Shown here: one piece after another, positions 11,395 to 46,223 of the stretch | Numbering within the stretch: position 1 is the stretch's first letter | Layout: every line of letters begins with the position of its first letter | Assembly (NCBI GenBank): GCA_029945375.1 | Contig: CM057069.1 | Coordinates: 186,001 to 250,000, forward strand | Origin: Agaricus subrufescens | Taxonomy: Eukaryota > Basidiomycota > Agaricomycetes > Agaricales > Agaricaceae | Direction: 5' to 3' | Length of the DNA: 64,000 bases | Notes under the pieces: model-generated | Seen by the model: the letters and a program-made list of their open reading frames with translations, nothing else | The model's database searches: none | Told to the model about the DNA's origin: nothing | Translations under genes and position numbers: made by a program

Positions 11395-11516
11395 CAGGCT
11401 CCTACCCAGCCGACTCACGTGCGTACGTCCTATAGCGGACTCGACCAAACACGAACAAAGTAAGGGTTTGCTCACGCAGTGAGAGGCTGGCACCATATGA
11501 GTTTCGGCCATCACCG
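11395..11516 (+). repeat. Left terminal inverted repeat and subterminal region
   Basis: After the 22-bp perfect terminus, similarity to the right end is lost for ~50 bp. It then resumes in GCTCACGCAGTGAG-AGGCTGGCACCA (about 11470-11497) and in a CATCACCG block near 11508. The inner block contains an imperfect palindrome that is perfect at the right end. It could be a binding site for the element's transposase. Confidence 0.8.
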
Positions 11517-11606
11517 ATGATTACACTAGCAGCGAGATTGGAATCGGCGACACATTAATTATTCTAATTAATCTAATAATACTTGTCACGCCCATTATCC
11601 GTATAA

Positions 11607-14256
11607 ATGCCCGCCATGCCATCCAACCCTGAATCTCCGCGTTCCGATTGGACAACTCAACGCATGATTGATCTAGTACAAAGAAAATTCAATAAAAGGC
11701 CCTGCTGGTATCAAATAGAAGTCGCAAAGGCCTTCTATGCGGGCCGGGATGTCATCGGCTGTGCACCAACAGGAGCGGGGAAGACCCTCTCGTTTTGGAT
11801 CCCCTTGCTGATGGCACAAGAAGATGGACATAAGAAGATTCTATTCGTCATCAGCCCGTTGAATGTACTGGCAAAACAGAATGTTGAGACGCTTACCGAA
11901 GTTGGCATTTCCGCTGTGGCTGTGGCAGCCGAGAACGCGACTTCTTCGACTTTCAAGGTTAGTCACAGCGGCTCTGTGATGCCATCAAGCTTACCAAGAA
12001 GCACAGGATATAAAGCAGGGACGTTACGAAGTGGTTGTAACCAACCCAGAGATCCTTGTAGCAAACACCGAGCTCAAGGAACTCTGGAGCAAAACAATGT
12101 TTACCAAGCGTTTACTGGGGTTTGTGTTTGATGAGGGACACTGTATAAGTCAGTGGGGAGGGTTCCGAAAACAATATCTGGCAGTAGGTATTATACGGCA
12201 CCTCATTGCTGAGCCAATCCCCTTTTATCTCGCTTCAGCCACCCTTCCACCTCCAACCATCAATGAAAGTCGCCGTTTACTTCACATCAATTCCCAATCC
12301 CTCAGCCAAATTCTCTGCTCGAATGATCGTCCAGAGATTTCTCTATGGGTCCAGGTATTGACGCGCCCATTGTCATCCTATGAAGACCTGGCTTTTTTAG
12401 TTCCATATAACTGGCAGACTGGAATGGACAGACCTTGTAAATTCTTAGTTTTCTTCGATGACATTAAGGAAGCGGAAGCAGCCACAAAATTTTTTCGCCA
12501 ACGGCTGCTACCGGAGTATCATTCCAGAGTCGCATGGTTCCACTCAACCATGAGCCAGCGGTATCGTGAAGAGGCAGTGAAGTCTTTTCACCAAGGAGAT
12601 ATCTGGGGCCTATTTTGTATGGACGCATTCGGTCTAGTAAGTAATTACATAGCAATGCTCTCAGGGAAAATACTCACCATTTTTCAAGGGAATGGATGTC
12701 GGTAATGTTGAGATCATCGTTCAATATAAGGCCACTTGCGATTTATGTACGCTCTGGCAACGTTTTGGGCGTGCCGCACAATCACCGGATACAAAAGGGA
12801 TAGGGATCCTGCTGGTGGAAAAGAAGGACACCATTGATGGAAGAAAAGGACGACCGGGGTACAAGCGAAATGCGCAGGACTCACAGAACGGCCGTTGACA
12901 GCGACAGCGCATGCAGGCATCAACCCATGAGGAGGACAGCAGTGGTAGCTTGATGCATGTTGAACATCAAGCTCCGTCTTCCAATTTGATCCCCAAAGCT
13001 TCCGAGGCCACATGGTCCCATCAACGCCAAGAGCAATACACCAGGCCAGAAATAGCACTGGGAGACCCTACCAATACCAAGAAAGGCCGTGCGCCGGGTG
13101 TGATACCAGGGACAGCCCTCGATGATTACATTAACCTGCCCTCGTACGTTTCTTGTCGCCATCTTGTCCCTCAGTTGTATTTTGCCAACAACAAACGAAG
13201 TGAGTGCTGTTATTATGAGTCATCTCGCACACAGTAAACATTTTCCAGTTACCAGGGCTCATGAGTTGTGCGACCCGGGTTCCCATCAAGGCTGTGAGCG
13301 GTGCCGGCCAAAGACCGGCAGTATTTGCTGCGACAAGTGCACCCCAGACGCTTTTTCCGACTTCAGTGCCCCTGTGCTCAACAAGAAACCATCTGCCCCA
13401 CGCCGTTCAATTATACCAAGCCATTATACACAAAGTCCTCAACATTCAAATATGAAAAACAAAATATACGAATGGCAGAAAGAACAAGCAAAGACGCACC
13501 TTGGACCCGGACTGCTCCGTCGGCTAGGTGTTCAATTACTGATGTCAGAGGAAGTGGTTGAACGGATACTTGCCTGCTGGACTGCTGGGAAGATCACTCA
13601 CGTCTCACATTTGTGCAGGGAGACCACCTGGGCCCAGGAATGGATTGAAACTTGCGGTGACTTGCTCATTACCCTCTTAACCGCTTATTCACCCTTTGAG
13701 AAAGTAGAAGAACCGAGTGCCGAGGAAGCTGTCACCCCCTGTCACCAAAGCCAAGAGATCGTCACTCCATCGAACGCTCTCAGTGCCGGCGACACATCCC
13801 CCTCTGCTGTTCCTTCACCTGCACCTCCTGAGTGTAACAGCCGCGAGATGGCACGTGAATCCCTCGTACCCCTTATTGCCAACATGTCCAACCCCTCTCG
13901 CAATTTACCGACTTCCCAAACTCGAATACGTTCACGAAATTGGTGTAGTCAATGTAAACAGGTTGGGCATAATCGTGAGTGATCCGTCTCTGAAAAAGTT
14001 TCACTGTTCATTGCACAATCACAGAATGGTCATGCAAAATCTCCAAGGAGGTGAAACAAGAGCTTATTGAATCTTTGGGACAAGAAGGGGTGCAAATAGT
14101 TACCCAAGGTACCAATTCAATGCTACCAACTGTGCCGATAGCATCCTCGAGTACCATTCCGGCTCCGTCGAAACTACCTATGGCATATGAGTATCTTTGC
14201 ATGTCAAACTTGCATCAATCCTATTTCAACTGGAATACATGGAATCCATACATGCC
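11607..14256 (+). CDS. RecQ-like DEAD/DEAH helicase with C-terminal CCHC zinc knuckle (transposon gene, exons 1-5)
   Basis: Five exons join in frame: 11607-11957, 12007-12636, 12689-13199, 13249-13974 and 14025-14256, with introns of 49-52 nt. With the tail at 20148-20196 the product would be about 832 residues. Visible motifs: Walker A GCAPTGAGKT (residues 51-60), DEGHCISQWG (motif II, DEGH in place of DEAH), SATLPP (motif III), QRFGRAAQ (motif VI; RecQ usually QRxGRAGR), and a RecQ-type zinc cluster CDPGSHQGCERCRP...CCDKC in exon 4. At the exon 4/5 join there is a CCHC knuckle, CSQCKQVGHNQWSC (C-x2-C-x4-H-x4-C). A TGA at 12896-12898 breaks the frame after the helicase core; the surrounding frame stays open on both sides, so it is most simply a CGA-to-TGA mutation. 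The role is probably DNA unwinding in transposition (inference). A Copia element interrupts the last exon. Confidence 0.8.
14252..14256. repeat. Left 5-bp target duplication of the Copia element
   Basis: ATGCC precedes the LTR at 14257 and is repeated at 20143-20147 after the other LTR. Collapsing the two copies restores the helicase frame (…YMP|NTVQRPPG…). Confidence 0.92.
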
Positions 14257-14528
14257 TGTTGACTGTAGACAACGTAGATACGTCAGCTTTCAGCTGAGAG
14301 AGAACAACTGAATTGATATCACCTGTAGACAACGTAGATACGTCACTACAGGAAAACAATGTCAATAGAGAAAGAAAAGGAGGTAAAGGAACACACATAC
14401 GCTTTCAGCTGAGAGAGAACAACTGAAAGCGAATGTAGGAAGAACGCGACAAGTAATCTACGTAGTCACATGATAATCTACACGCATCACCTGACTAATC
14501 TATATAGCGTCTTTATGCATTTTCAACA
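14257..14528 (-). repeat. Copia 3' LTR
   Basis: 272 bp. It contains two copies of a 22-bp motif starting TGTAGACAACGTAGATACG and two copies of GCTTTCAGCTGAGAGAGAAC. The second set forms inverted repeats (CGCTTTCAG...CTGAAAGCG and CCTGTAG...CTACAGG). Such internal repeats are typical of LTR enhancer regions; their role here is inferred only. Confidence 0.93.
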
Positions 14529-14642
14529 CACCCCCACAGAAAGACAGCGTAATAGAATCAGAATAGAGAAGTGGTTGAATAGAAGAACAACATGAATAAT
14601 TGTGAAGAGAAATGAGAAATAAAAGAATGTTGAAACAGTTTT

Positions 14643-17600
14643 TCATGAAGGAAGAATGACGATACCCAAAGATTCACGATGTTTTTCAAACAGCGGTTGT
14701 GATAATGGCTTGGTCAGGATGTCAGCAGGCATCTCGGCGGTTGGTAGCCAAGAGGTTTTGAGTTCTTTACCCATATACTGGCGGAGAAAGTGGTGCCGTA
14801 CATCGATGTGCTTGGTTCGAGATGAAATGACTTCACGATTAGCAATTGATATAGCTGCGGAATTGTCACAAAGGATAGGATAAGAAAATGGTATAGGAAT
14901 ATCCAGAAGCATCAAGAACGTTCGGAGCCACAGTGCCTCCTTGACTGCATGAGTCAAGGCGTAGTATTCGGCTTCTGCGGATGACAAGGCTACCGACTTT
15001 TGTTTGACCGCCGACCAGGAGATACAGCAACCGAAGAAGAAAAAACAAAAACCTGCTATGCTTCTTCGATTGTTGATGTCCGACGCCCAATCAGAATCTG
15101 AAAAACCGCAATGTTGGATAAAACCTTGAATACTCGGCGGAAACTGATCATTTCTTCGTCCGAATATCATCCCCATTTTTCTAGTGCCTGCAATATAACG
15201 CAAAACGTTCTTGGCTGCTATCATGTGTTTTCGTGTAGGGCTAGAGTTATGTTGACCCAGAGTCATGCATACATATGCTATATCGGGTCGAGTGCACAGG
15301 GAAAGATATAGAAGACTTCCGACTAGACTTTGATATTTGGGTTTCAAATCTTCGTCAGAAATTGCAGGGAGTGCTCCCGGGGGAGGTTCCTTCATTTCTG
15401 AGAGCTGTGTCTTGATCGGTATCCCAAGTGGAGGCACGTCGACCATATTATAATCTTCTAGCAAATCGGAGATAAACGCTTCTTGTGACAAATATACAAT
15501 TCGCTTTGAACGATCTCGTATGATCCGACAGCCAAGATATAATTGCGCAGGGCCTAAGTCAACAATTGTAAGACGTTTGCGGAGTTGCATCAGGAACCAG
15601 TCGTATAGTTCTCGATTTGTGCAAGCAGTTAGGCCATCATCCACATGAATTGGTACAAAGAGTTGGAGTTTTCCTGAACGCGGCATGGGAATGGTAGGGT
15701 CGGGTGGAGTAGTCCATGAACCGTAAAAGAAAGCATGATCGACTTCACTCCGCTTCATGCCAATGCCGCTCATTACTGTTAAAATCAATTGATAAAACTC
15801 GTAGGCTGCTTGTTTAAGACCATAAAGCGCTACGTTGAGTTTCAACACTAATGAAGGATCGGCAAGTGGGAAGCCTGGGATTTGGCGGATATATATGTCT
15901 TGTCGTAAACGCGCATGAAGGAAAGCGGTTTTACAATCCCAGCCATAGAGTTCAAGATCGTTCACTGCCGCAAGTGAAAGGACTACCCTGATGCTCGCCA
16001 TTCTCGTCACCGGAGCATATGTTTCACCATAGTCTTCGGGACGCTGACTGAAACCCTTCGCTACTAACCGGGCTTTTTCTTCTCCTTCCTTTGGCACCCC
16101 CATATCGTCCAGTTTAAATGCAAACACCCATCTCACGTCAATAGCTTTACGTCCTTTCGGTAAAACACACTCATCCCAAGCTTTCATTTTCATCAAACTT
16201 TCGTATTCCCTTTCCATCGCTCTTTTAAACATTTCCCAATCCCTTCGTTTTTGTGCCTCTCGATAACTCTCCGGCGCCTTGTTGTAACCATATGACGTTG
16301 CTACCATCGCTATGGGATTATCCAGTAGAAGTAATCTCGTCAAGATATCTTCACATTCCTCCATCGCGAGTTTAGTAAATTCAGCCACATAGTCTCCATG
16401 AACGATCTCTTGTGTATCTCCATATGCGATGAGAGCCCTGATGGTTTCCGGTGAGTGAATTGGTTTGTTTCCCACATTCCGTTTTGATCGTCTGATGGCA
16501 CGTTCTTTGATCTCATCAAGATACATTTCTCCTTTAGCTGTTCGTACTCGGCGTACATCAACACCCCCATCCAACGAGGTTGGAAGAATAAGAGGGCGCG
16601 GAGTACCCAGGCGACCAGGACGTGACTCATCGAACACGACATCAGCGGAAAACGAATAAGAGCCAGATGTGGAGCGGACACGCCAGCCAATTCTACCCTC
16701 CTCGTAACCAACGAAAATTGCTTCATAGCGGCGAGGACCAGCTTTAGTACGCTTTTCTGGAGGTATGATGGGATAGCACAGGCACCCCCATACACGAAGG
16801 TGAGAGAGGTCTGGCTTATGACCAAAAATACGTTGAAAAGGAGTAATACCAGATGGCAGAGTGGAAGTAGGTAGCCGGTTCCGGAGGTATTGAATCGTCA
16901 GGACAGCATCTCCCCAAAATTGATCAGGCAAGCCTGAAGCAGCGAGAAGTGTCTGGCATCCATCCTCGAGAGTACGTATGAATCGTTCAGCTTTTCCATT
17001 CTGATAATGAGCATAGGGAGCAGTCACTTGAGCAAGAACACCTGTTGAACGCAGGTGGTCCCCGAGCTTACCCGCAACAAGTTCCTTAGCACCATCAAGA
17101 CGAACGGATCGAACAGAAGCAGAACACTGTTTCAACAGGAACGCTTCAGCCAAACAAAACGATTCAAAAACATCCGTTCGGGAGGAAAGCAGATATGTAA
17201 AACCGAAATTGGAATAATCATCCAATATGGAAAAAGCATATCTGGCCTTCGAAGGAGTCCGAACCGGCCAAGGACCACATACGTCAACATGGAGTAGGCC
17301 CCCGACGATATCAGCACGACCACCACGAGAGGGATGACTCTGTTGAGCTCCCTTTCCGATAGTACAGGAAGGACAAATATCGCGGACGAAATCGCCAACA
17401 ACAGTCACACCTTTCACATAATCTTTTGTGAGTGCTGAACGTGTGGCATCGAGACCCAGATGACCGAAGCGTTGATGCCAAAGGTCAGGTGTCAAAGGGA
17501 TCGAGGTAAGGAGAGATATTGCCCCAGAGGAAAGCTGTCGGAGGGTATTGATATATTGACAGCGTAACCATGAAAGTCCGCCGCAAGAAGTGACTGGCAA

Positions 17601-19790
17601 ATCGAGAAGAGTACCGTCGACGCGAGCCAGTGAAAGAGCTGTTACACCGGGAGATGTAAAGGAGCACGATACACCCGAAGAAACAAGTCGACCGACGGAT
17701 AGGAGGTTAACTGGAACTGCTGGAGCGAAGAGACAACCACGCAGTTGAACGCGAAGAAGTCCTGAGGGGGAATTAAAGCAGAGGCATACAGTACCACGGC
17801 CAAGGATAGGAAGTTGAGAGTTATTAGCGGTAGACACAGGTACCGTGAATGAATCATCGAGCGTTGAGAAAAGATCTTTGTTATTGAAGATGTGATGAGT
17901 CGAGCCCGAATCCAGTAGAGCCTCGAAGGAGCCGATAAATCTCTCATCTTCTAGCATGACAAGGTCATCATCACTCGCTTTGCAATTCATCACAACGGGT
18001 GGATAGAGAGAAGAAGAGAAATCGGCATTAATGGAAGACGGCAGTACAACATTCGCACTATACATTTCGTCATCATTGTCCCCACCCCCATCGTCCAAAA
18101 CAATTTCATCAACAGCTTCAACTGGTTCCTCAGCCTGAGCGGTAAGATGAGCCTGAGGTCGTGGTTTGAAATTTGGATCACGACGTGTAGAAGAATTCGC
18201 AGCAGGAGGTTTTGCAGCTGATGTAGAAGGAACTGTATTACGATCGCGATCTCGAGTAAGAGTTTTCAAGGAAGAGGAGCTGTCTTTCAAGCGGAAATTA
18301 TGAAGGATCGATTGATCAAGTAGACGTCGAATGGTGCTGAAGACGAAATCGACTCTCAAGTTAGGATTTGATGCGACTTGATCATAGGCGTCAGTTTTTA
18401 TGGACGCGATTATTCCAAAGGAGGGGAGCGGACGGAAGAAGGTATCGAGAGCATGGACAGCATCGATTCGATATTGAGAATCGCAAACTCGGCTAAAGTC
18501 AGCGAGCCAGCGTTTGCAATATCCCTTGATGTCAGTACCCGGCTTCAAATGGAGAAGGTCCTCCCATACTGATCTCCCGCCAATCCAATCACGATTGGAA
18601 TGATGAAGACGTAACGCTTGGTATATCTCTCTCGCGTTACCACCTCGTTTGACCGTAGCGATTGACCCAGCCACTTCTTTAGTGATTCTTCCCAAAAGGA
18701 CATGTCGTGCGATGCTATCCACAGACTGCCAGTTTCGTGCAGCATGTAGTTCATCATTTGTGGGGGAAGCGGATAAAGTAGGGCAAATCGACATGGAGTA
18801 AATTTGATTTGGGGGATCGTATGCAGGGTCGTAAATGTGGTCCAAATATCCAAGGCCGTCGAGTATCGTTCGGACACCATCATCCCAAGCATCGAAGTTT
18901 GATGATCCCTCCAGATAGTCCAAGTTTGAAAGAGAAGGGATAGTACGAGGAGAAGAATTAATAAGAGAAGGAATAGAAGAATTATTAATTATAGGTGCAG
19001 CAGTCGACGCCGGTACTACATAAGAAGGGGGGGGTTGAAGCGAAGGTGGCTGCTGTCCATATGGCAATCCTTGAGTAGGATGCGAAGAAAAATTAAAAGG
19101 TTGAGAATAAGGTTGAGAAAAAACATGCTGAGGAAAGAAATAAGGCTGTGTTTGGTTTTGAAAATAAGGAGGATAAGGAGGATGATTATAATTTGAAACG
19201 AAATTATTGGTCGGATGAGGAGGATGTTGTGAATAATTATTTTGAAAAGGTGGATGAACTGGTGGAATTGGTGGAACTGGTGGAATTGGTGGAACTGGGT
19301 AATTAGGAACGAATGGTGAAGGTAAGGAAGGAGTGCCCGAAGGTCTATTCCCCAAAATTGGTGAAGGGGTAAGACTTGTATTTTCTGAATGCAAAAAGGG
19401 GGATTGAGGCGACTGCTCATGAATCGTTGGCAATGCCGGATGTGAAGAAAAATGGGGATTAAAGGTGGGAGCTTCGGGCGCTGAAGGGTGAAGGGAATTA
19501 TTGGATATATGCGCAAAGCGCTGAATCGGAGGAAAATGAATGTCTATGCTACCAGACGAAGGATTACTATTTAATGAAGAAGAATGTGAAACAGAAGGAT
19601 TCAAAAAAGGATGATTTGGTTGTGAATTTGAAAGCAAAATACGGTTACCATCTGGAGGGTTCAATGCTTGTGATATTGAGGAAGTGTCATTGCCGAAATT
19701 TGGTGGGGGATTTCGTAGTTGTCGTCCAGGCATAATTTTATGATTGTATGCGGTTGAATAACTTGGTTTGGGTGGATATATGCGTTGCAA
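14643..19790 (-). CDS. Copia Gag-Pol polyprotein
   Basis: An intact 1715-residue frame in the usual Copia order. A long P/S/N-rich N-terminus with repeated PPVPPIPP-like runs (about residues 1-280) is followed by a Gag region (UBN2-like, FDAWDDGVRTIL...), protease LLDSGSTHHIF, GAG-pre-integrase with H..H..C..C (LWHQRFGHLG...CPSCTIGK), and integrase with D (HVDVCGPW), D (VRLDGAKE) and E (GKAERFIRTLED). Reverse transcriptase has AFKLDDMGVPKEGEEKARLVAKGF and the VPIHVDDGL catalytic box. RNase H has SDSDWASD and SSAEAEYYAL. No CCHC zinc knuckle is visible between Gag and protease, where one is usual. Start chosen at the first ATG, 80 bp inside the 5' LTR. Confidence 0.95.
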   Translation of the reverse strand: MQRIYPPKPSYSTAYNHKIMPGRQLRNPPPNFGNDTSSISQALNPPDGNRILLSNSQPNHPFLNPSVSHSSSLNSNPSSGSIDIHFPPIQRFAHISNNSLHPSAPEAPTFNPHFSSHPALPTIHEQSPQSPFLHSENTSLTPSPILGNRPSGTPSLPSPFVPNYPVPPIPPVPPIPPVHPPFQNNYSQHPPHPTNNFVSNYNHPPYPPYFQNQTQPYFFPQHVFSQPYSQPFNFSSHPTQGLPYGQQPPSLQPPPSYVVPASTAAPIINNSSIPSLINSSPRTIPSLSNLDYLEGSSNFDAWDDGVRTILDGLGYLDHIYDPAYDPPNQIYSMSICPTLSASPTNDELHAARNWQSVDSIARHVLLGRITKEVAGSIATVKRGGNAREIYQALRLHHSNRDWIGGRSVWEDLLHLKPGTDIKGYCKRWLADFSRVCDSQYRIDAVHALDTFFRPLPSFGIIASIKTDAYDQVASNPNLRVDFVFSTIRRLLDQSILHNFRLKDSSSSLKTLTRDRDRNTVPSTSAAKPPAANSSTRRDPNFKPRPQAHLTAQAEEPVEAVDEIVLDDGGGDNDDEMYSANVVLPSSINADFSSSLYPPVVMNCKASDDDLVMLEDERFIGSFEALLDSGSTHHIFNNKDLFSTLDDSFTVPVSTANNSQLPILGRGTVCLCFNSPSGLLRVQLRGCLFAPAVPVNLLSVGRLVSSGVSCSFTSPGVTALSLARVDGTLLDLPVTSCGGLSWLRCQYINTLRQLSSGAISLLTSIPLTPDLWHQRFGHLGLDATRSALTKDYVKGVTVVGDFVRDICPSCTIGKGAQQSHPSRGGRADIVGGLLHVDVCGPWPVRTPSKARYAFSILDDYSNFGFTYLLSSRTDVFESFCLAEAFLLKQCSASVRSVRLDGAKELVAGKLGDHLRSTGVLAQVTAPYAHYQNGKAERFIRTLEDGCQTLLAASGLPDQFWGDAVLTIQYLRNRLPTSTLPSGITPFQRIFGHKPDLSHLRVWGCLCYPIIPPEKRTKAGPRRYEAIFVGYEEGRIGWRVRSTSGSYSFSADVVFDESRPGRLGTPRPLILPTSLDGGVDVRRVRTAKGEMYLDEIKERAIRRSKRNVGNKPIHSPETIRALIAYGDTQEIVHGDYVAEFTKLAMEECEDILTRLLLLDNPIAMVATSYGYNKAPESYREAQKRRDWEMFKRAMEREYESLMKMKAWDECVLPKGRKAIDVRWVFAFKLDDMGVPKEGEEKARLVAKGFSQRPEDYGETYAPVTRMASIRVVLSLAAVNDLELYGWDCKTAFLHARLRQDIYIRQIPGFPLADPSLVLKLNVALYGLKQAAYEFYQLILTVMSGIGMKRSEVDHAFFYGSWTTPPDPTIPMPRSGKLQLFVPIHVDDGLTACTNRELYDWFLMQLRKRLTIVDLGPAQLYLGCRIIRDRSKRIVYLSQEAFISDLLEDYNMVDVPPLGIPIKTQLSEMKEPPPGALPAISDEDLKPKYQSLVGSLLYLSLCTRPDIAYVCMTLGQHNSSPTRKHMIAAKNVLRYIAGTRKMGMIFGRRNDQFPPSIQGFIQHCGFSDSDWASDINNRRSIAGFCFFFFGCCISWSAVKQKSVALSSAEAEYYALTHAVKEALWLRTFLMLLDIPIPFSYPILCDNSAAISIANREVISSRTKHIDVRHHFLRQYMGKELKTSWLPTAEMPADILTKPLSQPLFEKHRESLGIVILPS

Positions 19791-19870
19791 TCTATCCTGA
19801 TAATCTATAACTCGTGAGCTGTTTGAAATCTAACGTACCCTACAGTCGGTTTATGGCGGGGCCCATAACC

Positions 19871-20142
19871 TGTTGACTGTAGACAACGTAGATACGTCAG
19901 CTTTCAGCTGAGAGAGAACAACTGAATTGATATCACCTGTAGACAACGTAGATACGTCACTACAGGAAAACAATGTCAATAGAGAAAGAAAAGGAGGTAA
20001 AGGAACACACATACGCTTTCAGCTGAGAGAGAACAACTGAAAGCGAATGTAGGAAGAACGCGACAAGTAATCTACGTAGTCACATGATAATCTACACGCA
20101 TCACCTGACTAATCTATATAGCGTCTTTATGCATTTTCAACA
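19871..20142 (-). repeat. Copia 5' LTR
   Basis: Identical by eye to 14257-14528 over all 272 bp, with the same internal duplications. Transcription of the element would start here and run leftward across the helicase's last exon. Confidence 0.95.
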
Positions 20143-20147
20143 ATGCC

Positions 20148-20196
20148 GAATACTGTTCAACGCCCACCTGGTTCCCAGGATCCATCTCGCTCTTAA
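20148..20196 (+). CDS. Displaced 3' end of the RecQ-like helicase
   Basis: Sixteen codons that continue exon 5 in frame once the Copia element and one ATGCC are removed (NTVQRPPGSQDPSRS, then TAA at 20194-20196). In the present arrangement the helicase would instead read 18 codons into the LTR and stop at 14311. The stop lies 9 bp from the stop of the convergent DUF6589 gene. Confidence 0.8.
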
Positions 20197-20205: not shown

Positions 20206-22281
20206 CTAGAACATCTCGTCAACAAATAGGCTTCCGTCGTCTTGAACTTCTGTCTGCTCGAGGTCATATTGGCTCTGCTCATCTTCTTCGTCTTCGCTGT
20301 ACTCCCCTGCATCAAGGCCTAACTCCGCTCTGTACTTGCTCTGTGTCTGGGTGCTCTTGGTGCTTGTCCTCAACTCTGCTGCCTCCGTTCTCAGCTGCTT
20401 CTGTGCCTCGGCCTCTCGCATCAACCTGTCCCTGTCTTGATTTACCAACGCAGTCAACTTGACCATACCTATATGTATAGTATCAATAATTTTATGTTCT
20501 TGGTGTCGTCCGCAATAGATTCATGGACTCACTCTTTCTCCATATATTCGCGCAATCTCCTGAATGTGGCTTGCATTTTTGGAGGATGATGCCGACTTGT
20601 TCTGTGTGTCAAGCAAAACATCTGTTCAAACTGATGTCGAACATCTTTATACACTTCAATTAGAGGTGACGCATCAACCATTCGATTGACGGTATGGTTA
20701 GACCCCATGCCACCAAAGATTCGTTTGATATAAAGATTGTTGTGTTCGATAACCCAGTCTACACCGTGAAAACTGTTTTTGCGACCGGTGGGATTGACTA
20801 AAGAGTTCATCCTTATGGCATTTCTAACATCAAAGAGCATCAGAAAAAAGATTTAGTGAAATTGTGCAAGAAATACACTCACGCGAGTGGTTTGGGATAA
20901 TGGACATACATATTCTCCAGGTAGCGAAGGATACCCCGTGCATATTTAGCTTTGCCACATCCCATGAAGTAATACATCCATTCGACGAGGCAAGCATCGA
21001 GTCTCCCCATATCTCCGTGATTCATAGCATAATTCGTCTCCTCATACAGGAGAAAATCTTTGTGGTAAACCCTCGTCTGTTCAAAGACTTTGTCATCATC
21101 CACCCCACTGTCTGATGACGTGTCCGGGGGAGCAACGACTGTCTGTGCAAGATGAGTTGCGATTTCATGAATCTCCGTCCACTCCGGCCTAGTCTTGACC
21201 CACTCTTCCAGCGATGAGAATTCAGGATGACGCCGACATACTTCCACATGCCACGCGTCCAGCCGAAGCACAATACCAGCATGAAGTATCACCTCGTGAA
21301 GCTGGCGGAATGTAGGGTTTGTTTGAATTTTTTGCCTCTCGACAGGCCGTAGTTTAATGATATAACTCATTAGAGATGCAGGATTTTTTCCGGGATCAAC
21401 TGTCTGGATGTGCCATCTCCAAATGGCGTCAGCACACGCCATTCGTGCGTGAAACCATCCATGGCAATAAACCTGGGCTTGAAATCTCAAGCCCGGGCTC
21501 ACATCGTCAATTCGGGAATCCTGGAGGCTATGGACATGTTGTCCTGTCAACAGATCGCCGAAGACAGGAATTGCAGTGATGCCAGAATTAATGGGAGTAC
21601 GATTACTAGTCCTCTTTGACGTCGTGTCTTCCCATAGGTTTGATTGTGAAAAGAATTCTTCCAAGACTGTAGCATTGGTTGCTGGTGTGCTGGGGCCCAT
21701 TTTCGAAGCACGAAGGGGTACTGGCTTTGTCTTCACGAGGGGTATGCAGTCGATTTCCTCTGGTTCTCCCAATTTCTCCTTGAATACCGAAAACTCTGGT
21801 GGACCGTATGTAATGAGGTCAAACAAGAACTTCCAAACGTTGAAGCGATCTTGTATTGATTGCCCTTGTGCATCAAGTTCATTGTACTTCGACGGCAAGC
21901 TAGCCATGAGTTTGGCTGTAGTTGGGGGAAGTGGTGGGTTGGTTAATAGTTCTCGTAAGTGGTCCGAATAATCGAGGTCGTCCTTTGTTGTTATAGGGTG
22001 TAAGGGAAACATTGATGCCATTGTCAAATGGACAAGGGTATCTGTAGTGGAACTCTCTGCAGTCGGAAGAACATGGGGTAAGTTGACGTCTAGATTGTCG
22101 TAGGCATATGATGCTAAAAGTGTTTTTCCTAGGTTTTCAATTTCCTGGTATGCGTCCTTAGAAAGATTCTGTATGGCACGATTGATTGATGTGACCGAAA
22201 TTGAGACACCAAGGTGCGATAAGAAGTTTCGTGTTTGCTCAGAGACGTTGCAGGACTGCAAGAAGACACCAACTAACGCTT
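20206..22281 (-). pseudogene. DUF6589 protein, candidate transposase, 3' portion
   Basis: Three exons on the minus strand. The largest (down to about 20879) contains SYAYDNLDVNLPHVLPTAES, VFGDLLTGQHVHSLQD, GWFHARMACADAIWRWH and NYAMNHGDMGRLDACLVEW. The next (about 20529-20830) contains NSLVNPTGRKNSFHGVDWVIEHNN. The last is an acidic coiled tail (RLMREAEAQKQLRTEAAEL...EDEEDEQSQYDLEQ). These blocks match DUF6589, an uncharacterised family abundant in Agaricomycetes. The acidic residues in YDNLD, FGDLLT and IEHNN are spaced as in an RNase H-fold DDE enzyme, which I offer as inference. A LINE inserted at 22281 separates this part from the N-terminus at 45135-45878. With the nonsense codon there, the gene is broken. 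Confidence 0.75.
22268..22281. repeat. Left target-site duplication of the LINE
   Basis: ACCAACTAACGCTT precedes the poly(T) run and recurs at 45122-45135; the last T is ambiguous with the tail. Joining the two flanks restores the DUF6589 frame (…SMQALVG|VFLQSCN…). Confidence 0.92.
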
Positions 22282-22352
22282 TTTTTTTTTTTTTTAAATC
22301 AACATTTATTAAGCGCTGCCCGATCGCGTAGCGCTCCTGACCGGAGGTCAGG
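22280..22352 (-). promoter_or_regulatory. LINE 3' end: poly(A), AATAAA and paired stem-loops
   Basis: Just upstream of the A16 tail lie AATAAA and two inverted repeats: AGCGCT...AGCGCT (22312-22335) and a 7-bp stem with a 3-nt loop, CCTGACC-GGA-GGTCAGG (22336-22352). Structured 3' ends are used by several LINE reverse transcriptases to recognise their own RNA. Confidence 0.6.
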
Positions 22353-22919
22353 AAGAATGTGGTAAAAACAAATCGCCAAGCAACAAAGTGAGAAGAATAA
22401 ATGAAAACAAAACCCGATAGCACACGAAACTATGTAACACGGACAGCCCCAAGCGACATACGAGAAGCAGAGACAGTGAACTGAGTGGGAGAGAGGCTGA
22501 AACAGAGACTTAGCATATAATTACATGACCGTATCATGAGGAGCGCATGAATAGCCGAAAAGAGAAAGTGAAAGTGGAACCGAGAAAACAAACCAGGAAC
22601 CAGAGCGAGATCTGAGCTTGCTCAGGGGGATCCAGGGAGGTTAGGAACCAATTACCATTACAGAACCTGGATAAGGTTGGCACGATCCGAAGACCACTAA
22701 GCCAATAGGGTCCTTCCTCGACCGCCCTATTCGCAGCTTAGTAAAGCCTAAGCCATGGGGTTGCGCCCCTGGCTTGATGGTTGTGGTAATCCGCCGTGGG
22801 GACTGGTATGATGTCGATGCGGTCGTCTGATCGTACGAAGGTGACGGGGATGAATAGCTGAGCAAAGGTGGGGCCCAGCTTTTCGCGTATGAAGATGGGG
22901 TTAGAGTGGGGGATAGGGT
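22296..22919 (-). other. LINE 3' untranslated region
   Basis: About 620 bp between the ORF2 stop and the poly(A). It contains the stem-loops described separately and no other coding signal that I can support. Confidence 0.7.
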
Positions 22920-33983: not shown

Positions 33984-34639
33984 GGATTCGAGAGACGAAA
34001 ACGTGCACTCCGCAACGCTTAAAACCAGAAAAATTTTTTCGAGCCGGTTCGGGTCGTGCGACGAGGGCGTCTCTTTCCATAGAGGGGGGGAGGATGTCTC
34101 GAACGCATCGAGAAACTTGGATCTAGAGAAAAGCAGATGGACTGTAAGCGAACATCACGTCGGGTCACATCATGCAAGTCACGAGACTGTGTGACGCAAG
34201 GATGTGCGATTCGAGAAGGCAAACACTGAATTTACATGTTTAAATATATTCGGGAGACGGTCAAGGCGCAGAAAGCATGCCATATGGAATGCATGGTTGA
34301 ATCTAGGGGTGTTCGGATCGTAAGATCGTCCCCTCGAGAGAAGGCTCACGGGTGGTCAGGATCACACATGACTGAAGTTCAGACGGGTGAGAGACGTTAC
34401 GAAACGCATATCATAGGCAGAACGAGCTACAAACAAGGGAGCCAGATCAATAGCGCAAGCTATGACGTGGCAAACGAAAAAGTGTGTCCGAGAAGCGCGA
34501 GATAACAAAACAACTAGTCTGGCAGACAAGATAAGATAGACTAGGGGTGCTAGCAATGTTCAAGAAGCGAGGAATTTTATATGATGTGATATACGAAGGA
34601 AAACAGTCGCGAAGAAGACGCCGATGACCCAAGATTGCC

Positions 34640-36864: not shown

Positions 36865-37429
36865 GGGAAGGGAGATAGTCTGGCAAAGTAAACGCGTCAG
36901 CCTGGGTGGGTTTAAATAAGGACGAAAGATCGTGGAAAGGCTAGGTAGATCTCTGGGGTTATCGGTAAAAAAGGAAATCAGGTGTCAGCCACGAGCGAGG
37001 AGGAGCTGACGTATCCTGTCAACGGCCAGTCGGATAACGGCCGAGGCCAGACCCTGTTGAGGATCCGAGGTTGTTCTGCCCCAACGAAACTATCATAGAG
37101 GGGGAGAAAGGTTAAAAGAGGATCTGAGGGTGTAGATCGAGAAGGCGGACACCAAAGTGGAAGGTGTTGACTTCGGGGTGAGAAAAGAGAAGCACGGGGA
37201 AGGCGGACCGGCAGTGGTATCCTTTGCTGGCGGTAGTGCTATTTTAAGCACTCTTGGATATTACCAGAAGTAGCAATCCGGATCATGCCGAAAACCCGGA
37301 TCAAATGAACTTAGTGACGGGTTGAGGGATGCAAGGGAACCAACTCGAGGGCTCTGAGATAATGCAGAAGGAGGTGGAAATGAAACTCGCGAAGTGACTG
37401 AGGGCAGTCATTTCATAGTGGGGGGGAGA
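36865..37429. other. Gypsy non-coding stretch before the 3' LTR
   Basis: About 565 bp with no supported frame. It ends in the polypurine tract TGGGGGGGAGA (37419-37429). It must hold the promoter of antisense gene 1 if that gene is expressed. Confidence 0.6.
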
Positions 37430-38790
37430 TGTTACGGCCCCAGCCGTTTTACGCGTAAAGATACATGTAAGAAGGCATATATGGGGTGTTTCATGATCCC
37501 GAGAGTACCAATTGGCGGGACTCTTACGTGTCATAGGTCTCAGAGAGGTTTCACCTAACCAGGAAGGGATATTATGATCGAATCAAGGGTTCCATGGTTC
37601 TCGAGGGGAAACGTGTACCCGAGAGAGAAATATAGCCATGTTCGAGGCAGAGTTAGGCTGTCTCGAGATCATAGTCGTCTTTCTAGGGAAAACTACGCGT
37701 GTGTATCGACCAGAGATACGATCGAGGACTTAGCAGTGGCGGTCTCTCGAGTGAAACTTATGTTGGGAACATAGGCGGCTACTACTTACCAAAAGGGGAG
37801 ATGCCTAAGAGTGGCCCCTTGGGAAGAAGGACTTCTCGCGGAGACACACGCCTCATATGAAAGATAGTATGAACGAGGGTCGACCAACGTACTATGCGTA
37901 TCTAGGGTTGTTCTAGAAGGTGAATACTAAGGGGATATTAGGTCCGAGGGTTGTTCGAAATAGTGTCTAGGGCGCAGGGCTAGTAGAGTCAAGACGCCCA
38001 ATCGCAGACAGGGATTGACCAACGTGGATCATTCGGCCGAAGTAGGTGCGAGTCCCCGAGTGGAGATTGGCTGGATAGAGTTCCTCGAAGGCGGCGGCCG
38101 ACGCAGTAAAGATGAATTGGTAATTTATTCTACATATGTGTCTCGGACGAGTTGTACGGTATATAGGGCCAGTCTAGGGAAAAAGTTCGACACCGAATTT
38201 TCTGCCCAAACGCTGTGCGATTAAATCGAGAGTGGTTTTTCCGTCTCAGTGTATTAAGCGTTAATCAGGTACCTTACCGAGAGAAGTTCTTGTGTTTGAT
38301 CGCGAGAAGACCTTCCCTGGTCTAATAGAATCGAGATAGTGTCCGCGCTAGCTGGTCCTCTCTTGCAGTCTGTCTCGAAGTGCGAAGGCAGGTCAAGGGT
38401 TTATCCAGTTCGTCGAGGCATCGCTAGGAAGGACTCGCTATCCTTTCTAGACAGTTGTCTGACCCGATTGTATTGAGGACAGTCGTTGCGAGTTTAGCCG
38501 CTCGTCGCGAAGGTTTTAAACGAAAGATCTCAAGTCTAATCAAGGGTCGAGGGCCGACCACGACCAAGTTATCAAGTATCACTACAACAATCCCCATATC
38601 ATCAAAGTTTTCTACATTCCTATTCGCGAATCACCTATTTCAGCTTAAATTTGATTTACCTCCCCACGAACCGCATTCGAGACTCGGTGTAAAACACAAG
38701 TCTGGTTGTAATTCGATAATTATATTTCGAGTTATTCCTTTTTATTATTTTATCTATTTTTTTTATATCTACACCGACTCCGTCTCATCA
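37430..38790 (+). repeat. Gypsy 3' LTR
   Basis: 1361 bp, matching 23700-25061 with about eight substitutions (e.g. CCATTTT/CCGTTTT at the start, GCGAAACTT/GTGAAACTT, TCACCATATC/TCCCCATATC) and one T-run difference. Confidence 0.95.
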
Positions 38791-38794
38791 ACGC

Positions 38795-41700
38795 GCTGTT
38801 GAAAATGTGTCCTCTAAGGACCGGGACGCTTGGGGATAGGAGTTGGACATGTTGAACTTTATGGTTGGGATGTAGGCGTAGATGTTCAGTGATTTTCGTG
38901 ATGGCCATGATGGCCGCCCATGTATGAGCGTTTGCGATGGACGTGCGGCGCCCGGCGGGGAGGGTCTTGGAGTATATAAGGGATCCCTTATGTGTGATGG
39001 AGTAGGCGGCGTGAAAATGTAGAGGGAGGGATGGGTCGCCTGACTCTTCTTTTTGCTTCTTGCCGCTCATGACGGCGCATATGGAATGGTCCTCAGGGGA
39101 TGCGATGATTTTATTCAGTAGGTCGTGATGAGCGTCGATGACCTCTTTGGGAGCAGAAAGGGATGGGGGAGGGAGGGTGAGGGTGAGTTTGTCATGATGG
39201 ACGTCCATGAATCTTGATCCCGGTGTGGCTTTAGGATGGGTGGGATGGAAAGTTTCAGCGATAAGGTTGAGGTTGGTGACGTCTAAAGGGGACTTAGCGT
39301 TCTTCCTTCTCGTTTTGGACATCATCTCAAGGCTATCCGGGTGTAGCTTGGTACCTTGAGCCATATGGCGGTACGTGAGCACGAGGATGGGGTGACCGCG
39401 ATGTAGGGTGGCCATGCGGGCGACGGATTTGTCATGGAGTTTTTTGAGCGTGATGTGCATAGGGACAAGGCCTGCCATAGCCATGGCGCCGCCTGTAGGA
39501 GTAGTGCGGAAAGATCCCGTAATCCACAGGGATGCAGCACGATGCATGCTATTGAAGATTTTAGTGTTAGATACGAAGCCCCTGGTGCCGGGGCGATACC
39601 AGCATCTGAGACCGTATGTGGTGATGGGGATAACGCATGATGTGTAGAGGAGTTTTTTGTGGTGTGGGAGGAGACCCCGAGTGGAGTTACCAAGGATATG
39701 TAGGCATTTGGCAGCCGAAAAGGATCTAGTGGCGTATCTTTTGACATGGTCCTTGAAGGTAAGAGACCGATCGAAGAAGATGCCGAGGTATCTCCAAACG
39801 GTTTTGGCGGGGAGGGGATGATCGCCTGTGAAAGGCTCAACACCGAGGTCGATAGATGGGTTTGGGTCGCCTGGTTTCTTGGCGAAGTTAAAAAGCTCCG
39901 TCTTGGAGTGTTCCATGGCGAGCCCGAATTCTGTAAATAAAGACGTGATATGAGTATACGCGCGGATGAGAGATTCGTGAGTAGAAGAATAATCGGAGTC
40001 CGTAGCTACAAGGAGGCCATCATCGACATAGGATAAAAATGAGGAAATCGGTTTAATGAAGGAGTCGTCGTGTACAATCCATTTGTCCAACAGGTGAAAG
40101 ATGGGAGAAATATAGAGTGCGGACAGGATAGGCGAGAGTGCGCTTCCTTGTCCGACTCCTACGTCGCAAGCATATTTTTGTGATTTTTTGTTGTTAATAT
40201 TATACGAAGTGAAGCGGTTAACGAGATAGTCCTGGAAAAAGGAAACGATCTGTGGTGGATAACCGAAGTGTGTGAGTATTTCGCATAGGATGAGATGATT
40301 GAGAGATGGGAAGAATTGGGCAATATCGAATGCGAGGACCGATACGACCTGTTTACGGCTCCAGGCGTTTCTAACCATATGAGTAATGGCAACGGCCGCA
40401 TCTTCCGTAGATCTCTGAAGAATGCCGCCGGTTTGACAAGGATGGATTATATTGTGGGTGATGCCGTCGAATTGAAGGCGAGTGGCGATGATTTTCTCAA
40501 AGAGTTTACCGGTAGTGTTGAGGAGGACGATGGGTCGGAATGACTTGATCTTGTCATATGAAGGTTTGTTCGGTTTGGGGATGATGACCGAGGTGGATTC
40601 TTTGAAGTGTGATGGCCAGATGCCTTGTTGGACGCACGCGTTGCACAGAGAAACGAGGGTGGCTGTGAATTCTGGGGACGCCCTGATGATGCGTTTCAGG
40701 AGATGCCATGAGACATGGTCAGGACCCGGGGCTGAGTTTTTGGAGCAGCTACGTAATGCGTCAGTGAGTTCGAGTGGAGAAAAAGGGTTCCATTGTCGGG
40801 GATTGAGTGGGGTTAGGTTTTTGGTGACACTATCAAAGGTGACCTTGTGGTCGTTAGCGGAGTTAAAGGTGGAGTGAATGGCGTTAAAGAGGGATGTGTC
40901 GTCGTTACATGGTTTACCATTTTGGTCGAGGATAGCTTCGGTGGCGGGCAGTCTTCGCTCGTGGGTCCAGTCGATGAGGTCCCATGGTCTTTTCTTATCT
41001 ACCGCCGTGTATTTGATGGCTTTGCTATAGTGATTGTTCCGCTTAGCTTTCGCTACCTTTCTGAGATTAGTATATTTAATTGGGTCACATTTCTGACCAT
41101 GAAGGCGATTGAGCCTCATGTCGTTAAACAATGACTTGCATTCCTTGTCCCACCATTTTTTAGAATGGCGGGACGGTTTAGCCATAACGGCATGATGTTC
41201 CCAAGCAGAGGAGAAAATCTTTGCCATACCTGTGGTGAAGTTCTCGATTTGATCTCTGTCGGTGGGCAGGCCCATGTTCGTTCTGAGGGAGTTAGTTTCC
41301 TGGATGACGTCTGTAACGAATGCATCCTCTTCTTTCGAGTATCTATCGATGAACATTTTACCTATCGTATCATCTTGCCCTTTATTAGGGATTTTGATGT
41401 GGATCGGGTTGTGGTCAGAGTTGAATCTACTGACGTCGTCATCCTGAGTCGTAATGCTGAACCGTTGATCCTCGATGAGGTGGGGTGAGGCGAAGCAGAG
41501 GTCAATGATGGATGGTCGAACTCCTTCCTTTTGGTGAGGAACGTGGGTGGGGGCGTCGGGATTGGACGGAGTGGCGCGTAGTGTGCCTAGAGAGCTAGTA
41601 GCATTAATTAGTCTAGAGCTTAGCGAGTTAGGGCCATAGTGTGCTCTGGCCCCTCTATCCCATTCTACATCTTGAATATTGAAATCACCTGCGCATACGT

Positions 41701-42313
41701 CAATGTCAGGGAACTTATGTTGGTCGGTCTCGAGGATTTCGAGGGCTTTATGGGTACGGCTATCGTTGTAAACGTTAAGGATGTTAGTGGTTTGGCGTAA
41801 AGGGCCTGGGTGTTTAAGGGTGACTAGAGAAACGTCTTCGTGTTTGATTATGTCGGATCTGTATTGGGGGGTAAGAGACATGAGTCTTTTATTAACATAC
41901 ATGAGAACACGAGGGTGGAATGAGTCAAGTTTAGTGTTGTCGAACGCGGGGAGGAGAGGGGTCCAGGAGGGATGGATGGGGGGGCCATAGGCGTCATCCC
42001 CTTCGCGGTTAGTGGTGGATGGTTGGGAGCGGACACGCTTCCAGCCTGGTTCCTGGAAAAGAACGATGTCAATGAATGGGGCGCATCGCTCTAGCGTGAG
42101 CGATGTGTTTTCCCAGCTTTTGTTAGCGTTAAATAACCAAATGTTAAATAAAGGAGGGGCGAGTATTCGACACTCGTCGAGGGAGGGTGCGGGTGTATTA
42201 GTCATGTGGAATGATTTCGCGTTTTGGGTCGGAGAGCTCGATGGCATTTCTTCTTGAGGCGATACATCAGTCTCTGTCCTCTTCGGCTCTACGGAAGTGC
42301 CATTGTCGGTCAT
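38795..42313 (-). CDS. LINE ORF2, N-terminal part: endonuclease and reverse transcriptase
   Basis: 1173 codons from ATG 42313, open throughout. Its 5' end overlaps the end of ORF1 by 47 bases. Endonuclease/exonuclease/phosphatase fold: LFNANKSWENTS, IVLFQEPGW, CAGDFNI near residue 208 and FNSDHNPIHI. Reverse transcriptase: YKSFRPIVLLNTTGKLFEKI-like block, AFDIAQFFPSLNH, GVGQGSALSPILSALY and the catalytic SYVDDGLL near residue 761, then KTVWRYLGIFFD. The frame is cut by the Gypsy insertion at 38794 and resumes at 23699. With the insert removed the protein would be about 1433 residues, so it was intact when the Gypsy element landed. Confidence 0.9.
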
Positions 42314-45056
42314 GTTGATGCTGCTTATATTCGCATGCTATGTCGTAGGCCATATGGGGGCCTCCGCAGTTGAGACATTTGGGGTCGTGAGTGCATGCGG
42401 GGACATGGTCATCTGTTCTTTTCGAAGCACAACACTCCGCATAAAAATCGTGATTGTCAGTGCAATGCCCGTCGCCGCAGCGAGCGCATTTGTAATGATT
42501 TATTCTGCAAGCAGACGTGCCATGTCTCCATGACCAACATTTTTGGCACTGGGGAACAAATTCCCTTGGTCTAGCATATTCAATACGAATAAGCTTACCA
42601 TGAATGTGATATGGTTTATTGACGATATGCTTGGTGTTAGCGCCGTTTTGTGAGTCCCATACGTCCATAAACACGACGCATGTGTCGTCGGAGCGTTGTG
42701 ATTTGACGACGCGCAGTGTGCGTACGCATACAAGGCCATTGAGGCGAGAGTTCATGCTGAGGAGGTCAAGGACTTGCTCTCCCGTGAGCTTATCTTCGTC
42801 CTTTCTGCTGAATCTGTTGTTATACAGGTCGAATCCTTTGAGGATGAGGTGGGCTGTGGACTGTGGGGCGTAGGGGATGAGGGAGTCTGATGGAATGTCT
42901 TTTCCATTGTCAGCTTTGAGATCAAGGGCGCAGATGAGCGCGAGTCACAGGTCTTTGAATTCTGCTTCTCTAGGAACAATGTTGAGATAAATGTGGAAAG
43001 TGTTACCTATGATTTTGCCTGTTTCGGTCCTCATGTGGCTGCGGATGTTGGATAAGGTCTTGTTCATGCGTTCGAGAGTGGCCCCTATATTTGTGAGATG
43101 GGTGGCGTGCAAAGTAGCGTCAATGTTAAATATGGCGGCTTTACGGCTAGGCCCTTTAGAGACGGCGGCCGCTTTAGGGGTAGGGTGGGCTTTAGGGTTG
43201 ATGGGTTTGACAGGGGGTTTGATTTTCGGGGCGGGGATACGTTCTAGTCCCGAAATGGCTTGATTTTTGCTGTCTGTATCTAGATCGGATGCTAGGATCT
43301 TAGCTAGGAGTTCTTGAGCTTTGGGGGTGTAAGGCATGGGGGCGGGCTTAGCCGCATCAGCGTACGACGGTTTAGGGGGGGGGGTTGATTTTTAGGAGTG
43401 TTTTTACCGTATTTCTCCGCATGTAGCTTAGCGTGTTCCTGGATGACTTTCTCCTCCGTGAGTTTGTCAATCTTCTGTAGGAGGGCTGTCGTTTTCTTGG
43501 TTCCGAGGTGGGACATATCCTTGATAGATGATTTCAAGTTGCCTGCTGGTTTGGTGAAGGCGGATTTGACGGGAGTGGGTTTTCGAATGGGTTTAGGGGG
43601 CCCTAAGCGGATGGGGGAGCTGGCTCGGGGGAGGGGGGGGGGGTTGGATTTAGTTGGCGGGAATGGGGCAGGATTTGACGTAAAGTGAGGGACGCGGGGG
43701 GCCTTAGAAGTTTTGTTTAAGGCGGGGAATTTAGAGGTGTTGATAGTCGTCGGCCCGGCTCTAATGGGTATGGGCGTCGCATACGATAAATGCGAGTTAG
43801 CAGGGGAGGGGGCTCGTTGGGGGGGGGGGGGGGTCATCAGTGATGTCCATGGCCGCTGCCGGTGTTGCATGTGTTTCTTGATGTGGCCGGTATGGGGTGT
43901 GTGGTGCGGGTTGAGAGTATAATTCCCTCGCAGTTTCGTTTCCGACTTTGACATCAGCCCATCTGCATTTGGGGAATCCTTTGATGAATCTAAACGCTGG
44001 AGTGGCAAGAGCGTGCGGGTTAGTGATAAACTCGGGGATGAAGCAGTCATAGTAAGTGATTAGTTCCGCCCACAAGGCGTTAATGTGTTCCATCTCGTTG
44101 AAGGAAATGGTCTGTTTAAGTGGTTTGGGAGTAGGGGTGGTGGGTCTCTCCTTGCCGTGTATTTTGACATGGCTGGTGTTTACCTTACTAATCATTAGCG
44201 AGTTGTCAAAGTCTTCGACCTGTTGTTCTTGGGTGACTTCCATGGGGTTGGTGTCGTTTTCCATTTGTTTAAGGGCGGCGATAGTTTGGGCGGTGACGTG
44301 GAGTACGGCGGGGGATCGGGGGGTTTTTTCCAGATCCAGGTTGATGTGCTTATTAATCGGAGGGGTGACGGGGGTGGTCTGAATGGTCTGAATGGCATGT
44401 GGGGGGGTAGTCGGGATGCGGTTGGGGGACGGGGATGGGGCCCTGGATCTCACGATCCGTTTGATGGCTTCTTCGTTTTGCTGTTCCGTTCGGTTTTGGA
44501 ACTTCTCGGCTTCTATTTGGTCTCTGAATATTTTCCGGATCTGTTCATCTGTCATTCCTTCGTACAGTTTGCCGTTTTCCCTGCGGGCTTCAGCGATTTC
44601 GGAGTCAGTAAGAGATTCGTCGGAGATGTCCGATACTGATGCTGTGTCAAGGGGAGGGTTAATGATAACGGAGGTAGGTCTAGATCGGCCTCGTGGAGAA
44701 GTCGCTGCTTCAGCGTTGCTATTGATGGTGTGAGCGAGGAGGTTATCCTCAGTCAGTTGGTAACTTTCCCCGCTGGGTACCGGGGTGCGTCTCGCCGGAA
44801 TAGCAGAAGAAGAGCGAATACTGCTTGCCTTAGACCTGCTCTTTCTTCCGAGCATGTCGTTCTTTGGGTTGAAGCCTCTATCCGTGAGGTCAGAGGCTTG
44901 TGCGCGGATGGCACGTCTTGCTTCCTTGGCAGCTAGGCATTCGGATCGTCGTTTGGAAACTGTGTCGATATCTGGGGGAGGGGGAGGGGGTGGAGTCGGA
45001 TGAGAGTCTGGGATGTATAGGTCACTCATAGCAAGGCTTGTGGGCCTATGAAACAC
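42267..45056 (-). pseudogene. LINE ORF1 (Gag-like, zinc knuckles), frameshifted
   Basis: It starts MFHRPTSLAMSDLYIPDSH at 45056. Three frames are needed to follow it. Breaks fall at a 15-base G run near 43816-43830 and an 11-12 base G run near 43375-43386, and there is an in-frame TGA at 42945-42947. The N-terminal two thirds are proline- and charge-rich. The C-terminus has a cluster of Cys/His knuckles (CQKCWSWRHGTSAC, CARCGDGHC, CLNCGGPHMAYDIAC), as in ORF1 of fungal and insect LINEs. The homopolymer breaks could be sequencing errors; the TGA is less easily explained that way. Confidence 0.8.
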
Positions 45057-45121
45057 GGTATATTCCTAATGTGCGCTGCTTTTTTCACCGGGATGATGAA
45101 AGTAAGAGGCAAGAAGGAATG

Positions 45122-45135
45122 ACCAACTAACGCTT
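45122..45135. repeat. Right target-site duplication of the LINE
   Basis: ACCAACTAACGCTT, identical to 22268-22281, at the 5' end of the LINE. Confidence 0.92.
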
Positions 45136-45878
45136 GCATTGAATTGCAGCGTTGATTTGTTGCCTGCATCATGATACTGATGCAGGTAACACGTTTCTAA
45201 TTTCATTGTCGTAACGAGATTCAATTAATATTGAAAATAAGCAACACATACGATGTGCAATAAGGTTAGTCGTCGGTTTTCTATTTGCTCCTCTATATTA
45301 TCCGGTTCATCTTCGTTGTTTCCCACAATCCTAAATTCATGCCCCTCATCATCATCATCGTCAGGTACATTGCTTGTATTTTGATTATTTTGAGAGTTGG
45401 CATTTGCTTCTTTTAATGCTTGACGTCACTCTCGTTCCTTCTCTCGATGACGGGCAAGAGCTGGATCGGCCTCTAAGAGATTCCCCACCAAATCCCAGAC
45501 ATCTGGTGCGTAAGTTTGTATTCCTCGAGTTATTTTCTCAATAGTAATCTCCTTCAACTGTTCGGCTGTTATTGATGTAGCGTTAAAATGAAACCCTTTG
45601 TTTGATTTTGTCAAATTTCGTATCTGCGAAGTCAGGGTGCCGGTATATTCCTTCTTTATCCATTTCTTCATAATCTCTCTGGTTCTCTGCTGGTGCACCA
45701 ACCAACCCAATAGACGAGGTAGGTCTTCAAGGAAACTGATGATATACTGTGAGTTAGTTACTCCTGGTTCTAATAGTGAGCGACGAATCAGGTTCTCGAG
45801 TGGAATATTGCTGGTCTCGAGGGCATTGATTACACTATAAAATGTGTTTGGAGGGTCGTTCGGGGGAGGAAAGGACAT
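45135..45878 (-). pseudogene. DUF6589 protein, N-terminal portion
   Basis: ATG 45878 (MSFPPPNDPPNTFYSV) opens 150 codons ending ...LARHREKERE-TGA at 45426-45428. The same frame continues after the TGA (RQALKEANANSQNNQN...) into an acidic stretch (VPDDDDDEGHEF) and RRLTLLHI. An intron at 45197-45251 follows, then KRVTCISIMMQATNQRCNSM, the block that precedes the DUF6589 domain in related fungal proteins. The LINE cuts the gene here. The TGA is most simply a CGA-to-TGA mutation. The minus-strand start lies about 345 bp inside the right TIR. Confidence 0.7.
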
Positions 45879-46084
45879 GATGATGTTAGAAAGATAGTAC
45901 ACGGTATCATATTCCGTTTGTTTCAACAGCTGTCCATCGTGGCTACCCACGAAGAGCAATTGCACATGGCTCTCGACTTCGCGAACTTGAGTCTAACTGA
46001 CGTTGTCCCGAATTGGTATATGTTACGGTCACACACTTTAGATAAGCAGATATGTGAATTATATAATATTTTGTTAGCTCTGAC

Positions 46085-46223
46085 ACGCGCGGGAATCTAA
46101 CGCGGTGATGCCCGAGAAAGGAGTGGTGCCAGCCGCTCACTGAGTGAGCACACCTCTTTACGCGGTGTTTGGCCCTATTTGCCAAACGTGCGAACTCAGT
46201 CGAGTCGGCTGGGTAGGAGCCTG
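46085..46223 (-). repeat. Right terminal inverted repeat and subterminal region
   Basis: It ends ...GAGTCGGCTGGGTAGGAGCCTG, the inverse of the left terminus. A subterminal block TGGTGCCAGCCGCTCACTGAG (about 46123-46148) contains the perfect palindrome GCTCACTGAGTGAGC and corresponds to the left block at 11470-11497. Confidence 0.85.

What the first reader, a model, noticed from the sequence alone, without database searches (positions are those of the whole stretch)
11395..46223. A two-gene TIR transposon: RecQ-like helicase facing a DUF6589 protein
Seen: 22-bp perfect inverted termini, 9-bp target duplication, empty sites in two paralogous units, and, once three later elements are removed, about 6.1 kb holding only two convergent genes with stop codons 9 bp apart. 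The helicase joins in frame over five exons. DUF6589 is the only candidate for the mobilising enzyme. I know of no named transposon superfamily with this gene pair, so it may be an undescribed type of fungal DNA transposon. The transposase role of DUF6589 is inference.
Basis: partly seen in the sequence, partly recalled or inferred. Interest (0 to 1): 0.88.

Follow-up and report, generated by a model that had tools for sequence, protein, structure and literature searches.

The report
Fungal jumping gene with own helicase
This is a roughly 6-kilobase jumping DNA element of a fungus (likely a mushroom) that carries two genes facing each other, a RecQ-like helicase and a protein family of so far unknown function (DUF6589) that is predicted to be the enzyme that moves it; it is most likely a member of the already described AcademH transposons, not a new type.

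Summary
At 11395-46223 lies a TIR element with a 22-bp perfect terminal repeat and a 9-bp target duplication, split by a Copia element, a LINE and a Gypsy element inside the LINE. Without them it is 6,083 bp with two convergent genes, stop codons 9 bp apart; both genes of this copy carry internal stops.

The same genome has 24 DUF6589 loci. All 23 others carry matches to the convergent helicase; 16 of 24 have both termini and an exact 9-bp (one 10-bp) duplication. Four 6,079-bp copies, at three unrelated sites, differ by 0-2 bases. Both genes show dN/dS near 0.1. Short deleted copies keep the ends.

DUF6589 is predicted as an RNase H-fold transposase (pLDDT 89; nearest solved folds Hermes, P element, ISCth4) with invariant D, D, E. 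In other fungi 11 of 61 DUF6589 proteins share a contig with the helicase.

The claim of an undescribed type is not supported: AcademH (Kojima 2020) is on record as helicase-encoding, in fungi, with 9-10 bp duplications. I could not compare DUF6589 with an Academ transposase sequence. New here: the assignment of DUF6589, and recent exchange of helicase halves between copies.

The parts
11395..46223 (.). whole element, 6,083 bp without three later insertions
11386..11394 (+). 9-bp target duplication, left copy (CGTGAAACA)
46224..46232 (+). 9-bp target duplication, right copy (CGTGAAACA)
11395..11416 (+). 22-bp terminal inverted repeat, helicase side
46202..46223 (-). 22-bp terminal inverted repeat, DUF6589 side
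11485..11491 (+). subterminal GGCTGGC motif, helicase side (element position 91)
   Evidence: such a motif is present at both ends in 13 of 14 full-length elements
46128..46134 (-). subterminal GGCTGGC motif, DUF6589 side (position 90 from that end)
11607..20196 (+). RecQ-like helicase gene; interrupted by the Copia element; internal stops in this copy
   Evidence: open five-exon model of the homologous gene in L016 (847 aa)
20206..45878 (-). DUF6589 gene (predicted transposase); interrupted by the LINE; in-frame stop in exon 1 of this copy
   Evidence: open three-exon model of the homologous gene in L016 (905 aa)
14257..20142 (-). Copia retrotransposon, later insertion (duplication ATGCC at 14252-14256 and 20143-20147)
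22282..45121 (-). LINE, later insertion (duplication ACCAACTAACGCTT), itself split by the Gypsy element
23700..38790 (+). Gypsy retrotransposon inside the LINE (LTR pair; integrase and RNase H domains)

Best explanation
A two-gene DNA transposon of a fungus (likely an agaric), bounded by CAGGCTCC terminal repeats and 9-bp target duplications, in which the DUF6589 protein is predicted to be the DDE transposase and the convergent RecQ-like helicase likely assists it; it is most likely a member of the AcademH lineage. Shown: termini, duplications, empty sites, the gene pair in one element after another, near-identical copies at unrelated sites, selection on both genes, deleted derivatives that keep the ends. 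Predicted: RNase H fold with D, D, E. Inferred: the transposase binds about 100 bp at each end (TIR plus subterminal GGCTGGC), cuts the element out and joins its 3' ends to target strands 9 bp apart, and host repair fills the gaps into the duplication; the helicase opens or clears the DNA ends during cutting or repair.
Confidence: 0.85

Rival explanations
1. A transposon superfamily of its own: DUF6589 is a DDE transposase unrelated to Academ that independently acquired a RecQ-like helicase.
For: DUF6589 is a separate Pfam family of unknown function and is named in none of the held papers (one search gave one unrelated optics paper); a profile search of it reached 12 proteins, 11 of them labelled DUF6589.
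Against: Duplication length, helicase and host range match what is said of AcademH; putative Academ insertions were also reported in the agaric Marasmius oreades (PMC8290104, passages).
Confidence: 0.12
2. A KolobokH-type element: a Kolobok transposase with a RecQ helicase, so far found only in fungi.
For: [quoted passage not shown]
Against: Kolobok makes TTAA 4-bp duplications (PMC9587614); here they are 9 bp with varied sequence.
Confidence: 0.02
3. The helicase is only a passenger captured by the element.
For: Short derivatives without it were mobile, though they may be moved in trans; L026 keeps DUF6589 after losing the helicase core.
Against: Helicase dN/dS about 0.125; helicase matches at all 23 other loci; DUF6589 and helicase distances correlate over 12 pairs from other species, r 0.83, 0 of 10,000 permutations, although a shared species tree also gives this.
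Confidence: 0.15
4. Not a transposon: a host gene pair in segmental duplications.
For: Two locus pairs, L019/L020 and L026/L027, do share flanks.
Against: Sharp termini, different duplications at other sites, empty sites, deletion derivatives.
Confidence: 0.01

Closest known systems
AcademH (Academ superfamily; Kojima 2020, Mob DNA 11:15)
   Same: Helicase encoded by a DNA transposon, 9 or 10 bp target duplications, low-copy in Basidiomycota (as cited in PMC10045372 and PMC10799480, passages read); Academ is listed as a DDD/E superfamily (PMC9587614, passage)
   Different: No feature seen to differ; gene orientation, termini and transposase sequence of published AcademH families could not be compared (paper not held)
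KolobokH
   Same: RecQ helicase with a DDE transposase, fungi (PMC9587614)
   Different: TTAA 4-bp duplication against 9 bp here
hAT (Hermes)
   Different: hAT usually makes 8-bp duplications (PMC12730594, passage) and carries no helicase (recalled); no hAT Pfam domain reported in two DUF6589 proteins
MULE / IS256-like (ISCth4)
   Different: No MULE transposase Pfam match reported; no helicase (recalled)

Membership tests
AcademH | target duplication of 9 or 10 bp | tested here: met
   16 of 24 loci exact (15 at 9 bp, one at 10 bp)
AcademH | helicase encoded in the element | tested here: met
   DEAD and Helicase_C domains; matches at all 23 other DUF6589 loci
AcademH | DDE/D transposase | tested here: met
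   by prediction only: fold and invariant D, D, E
AcademH | transposase sequence groups with Academ | not testable with these tools
   no Academ reference protein or profile held; defining paper not held
KolobokH | RecQ helicase | tested here: met
KolobokH | TTAA 4-bp duplication | tested here: not met
   9-bp duplications of varied sequence
hAT | 8-bp duplication | tested here: not met
   9 bp
hAT | hAT Pfam domains in the transposase | tested here: not met
   only DUF6589 reported at E up to 0.01 in P0001 and P0010
MULE | MULE transposase Pfam domain | tested here: not met
   only DUF6589 reported at E up to 0.01 in P0001 and P0010

The most novel reading that the evidence does not exclude
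DUF6589 founds a transposase superfamily of its own whose transposition truly depends on its RecQ-like helicase, and whose helicase half (gene plus end) is passed between elements as a module by helicase-driven copying.
Probability: 0.1. Interest if true: 0.8.

Novelty: new member of a known kind. Interest (0 to 1): 0.45.

Why it matters
DUF6589 stands in public fungal gene sets as a family of unknown function (61 hits, all with PF20231, 49 with an organism name by my count). Reading it as the predicted transposase of helicase-carrying transposons would re-label those genes as mobile DNA, and the RecQ-like genes beside them too. A genome with four nearly identical copies, both genes open in the one modelled (L016), gives a concrete starting point to ask what a helicase does for a DDE transposase, which I believe is open (recalled).

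Tried and rejected
Looked for DUF6589 and PF20231 in print: no paper and one unrelated optics paper. The AcademH paper by DOI and PMC id, and the Muszewska 2017 paper by DOI, are not held. A profile search to reach animal or ascomycete relatives gave 12 proteins, 11 labelled DUF6589 and one without a domain label; no fusion with an XPG nuclease, which would have linked it to AcademX, was among them. No Academ or Kolobok protein is in the structure lists; that is no evidence against kinship. A search for the pair in basidiomycete papers gave one paper, on Helitrons (listing only). Relaxed pairing of ends in eight loci added no element. Several shared contigs are longer than 0.5 Mb, where sharing says little about distance. 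dN/dS left out five copies (duplicates or partial) and counted only pairs with dS between 0.1 and 2; a first run of that script stopped with an error. One search paired only the 100 listed of 129 terminus matches; of its 15 pairs I checked the ten under 2 kb, four are elements already in hand, and one of 10.9 kb was not examined. For L016 the helicase is quoted at 847 aa with the last splice choice that completes the CCHC knuckle; the longest choice gave 856 aa.

Full report
Observation. The element at 11395-46223 is real. Its two ends match perfectly over 22 bp and then diverge; it is flanked by CGTGAAACA on both sides. A Copia element (duplication ATGCC), a LINE (14-bp duplication) and a Gypsy element inside the LINE account for about 28.7 kb; without them 6,083 bp remain. 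The flanks joined without the element match two paralogous units at 8904 and 2757 uninterrupted, so the site was once empty. The two genes converge with stop codons 9 bp apart.

Host. The assembly is unnamed. The nearest DUF6589 and helicase proteins are from Leucocoprinus birnbaumii and Agaricus bisporus (Leucocoprinus is in Agaricaceae), so an agaric host is likely, by inference.

A family in one genome. The assembly (44.65 Mb, 44 contigs) has 42 DUF6589 matches, which I group into 24 loci. I fetched the other 23. All 23 contain matches to the helicase, in every case convergent; in L014 and L026 only its last part was found in the stretch. Both termini with an exact 9-bp duplication were found in 14 of 23, with an exact 10-bp one in L021; with the window this is 16 of 24. 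L017 has both ends but no duplication, and seven loci lack a clean end pair in the fetched stretch. L019/L020 and L026/L027 share their flanks and are copies of a larger region, so the 16 stand for 14 independent insertions. The 22-bp terminus has 129 matches genome-wide, 0 for the control. The helicase search finds nearly every DUF6589 locus again; at least seven further places match the helicase without a DUF6589 match, two of them inside internally deleted copies.

Mobility. Four copies (L016, L017, L019, L020) of 6,079 bp differ by 0-2 bases and lie at three unrelated sites. L016 has both genes open: 905 aa and 847 aa. Joined flanks of L018, L031 and L009 match elsewhere across the junction, best places 98-99%, 91-92% and 91-99%. 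Ten end pairs under 2 kb were checked: eight have an exact 9-bp duplication and two differ by one base. These are derivatives that keep the ends.

The ends. In 13 of 14 full-length elements (L016 and L019 nearly identical) a GGCTGGC-like motif sits 74-91 bp from both ends; 11 of 729 internal windows have it; L031 lacks it at both ends. The window and L009, L018 and L025 are 97-99% identical in the first 100 bp of the helicase side but 49% in the next 130; on the DUF6589 side the figures are 87-96% and 57-60%. Against the other eight elements compared, the helicase-side end is only 41-64% identical, so ends fall into types.

Helicase. Its core matches RecQ-family chains (Q1, WRN, RecQ, BLM, Q5) best. 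Pfam reports DEAD and Helicase_C but neither RQC nor HRDC. A CX2CX4HX4C knuckle lies near the C-terminus with one of the splice choices (zf-CCHC match below cut-off). Median dN/dS is 0.09 for DUF6589 (7 pairs, largest 0.18) and 0.125 for the helicase (5 pairs, largest 0.15), so both genes were kept by selection.

Exchange of halves. L009/L025 and L022/L023 are about 100% identical over the helicase half (roughly the first 1.5-1.8 kb) but have pS 0.36 and 0.41 in DUF6589. Recent gene conversion or template switching between elements is the simplest reading (inference).

Other species. Eleven of 61 DUF6589 proteins share organism and contig length with a helicase hit; 50 do not in the rows compared. 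In Leucocoprinus birnbaumii, Tricholoma furcatifolium and Pleurotus djamor the locus tags are consecutive, and in Rhodofomes roseus two apart. In Paramarasmius palmivorus one predicted protein holds both, in the same direction. Distances of the two proteins correlate over 12 pairs, r 0.83, 0 of 10,000 permutations; a shared species tree would also give this.

What is known. PMC10045372 (passage) says that AcademH generates 9 or 10 bp duplications and AcademX 3 or 4, and relates this to the helicase and nuclease they encode. PMC10799480 (passages) calls AcademH low-copy in Basidiomycota, Ascomycota and Mucoromycota. PMC8290104 (passages) reports widespread insertions of putative non-autonomous Academ elements in Marasmius oreades. 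Kojima 2020 itself is not held. KolobokH is excluded by its TTAA duplication. I therefore file this as most likely a new AcademH family. DUF6589 is named in none of the held papers, but the original paper may show the same protein without that name.

Noticed in passing
window 11291-11356: A perfect 66-bp copy of the helicase-side terminus ends 38 bp upstream of the element, without a second end or a duplication, at the junction of two tandem paralogous units.
   Followed up: partly
window about 2757, 8904 and 11357/46224 onward: Three paralogous units (75-92% alike over the stretches compared; the one at 2757 only over its first 300 bp); the element sits near the start of the third.
   Followed up: partly
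L009/L025 and L022/L023: Mosaic elements: helicase half about 100% identical, DUF6589 half diverged (pS 0.36 and 0.41).
   Followed up: partly
L022:2610-2622 and L025:2434-2533: Elements apparently inserted into the ends of related elements: L022 within a terminus (duplication GCTCCTTCC), L025 with duplication GGCTGGCAC, the subterminal motif.
   Followed up: no
L017: A copy with one difference from L016 and both ends intact but no target duplication.
   Followed up: no
L018 flanks: The target is a short inverted-repeat element of about 140 bp with many copies in the genome.
   Followed up: no
window 62026-63714 (-): An open frame of 562 aa without a Pfam match.
   Followed up: no
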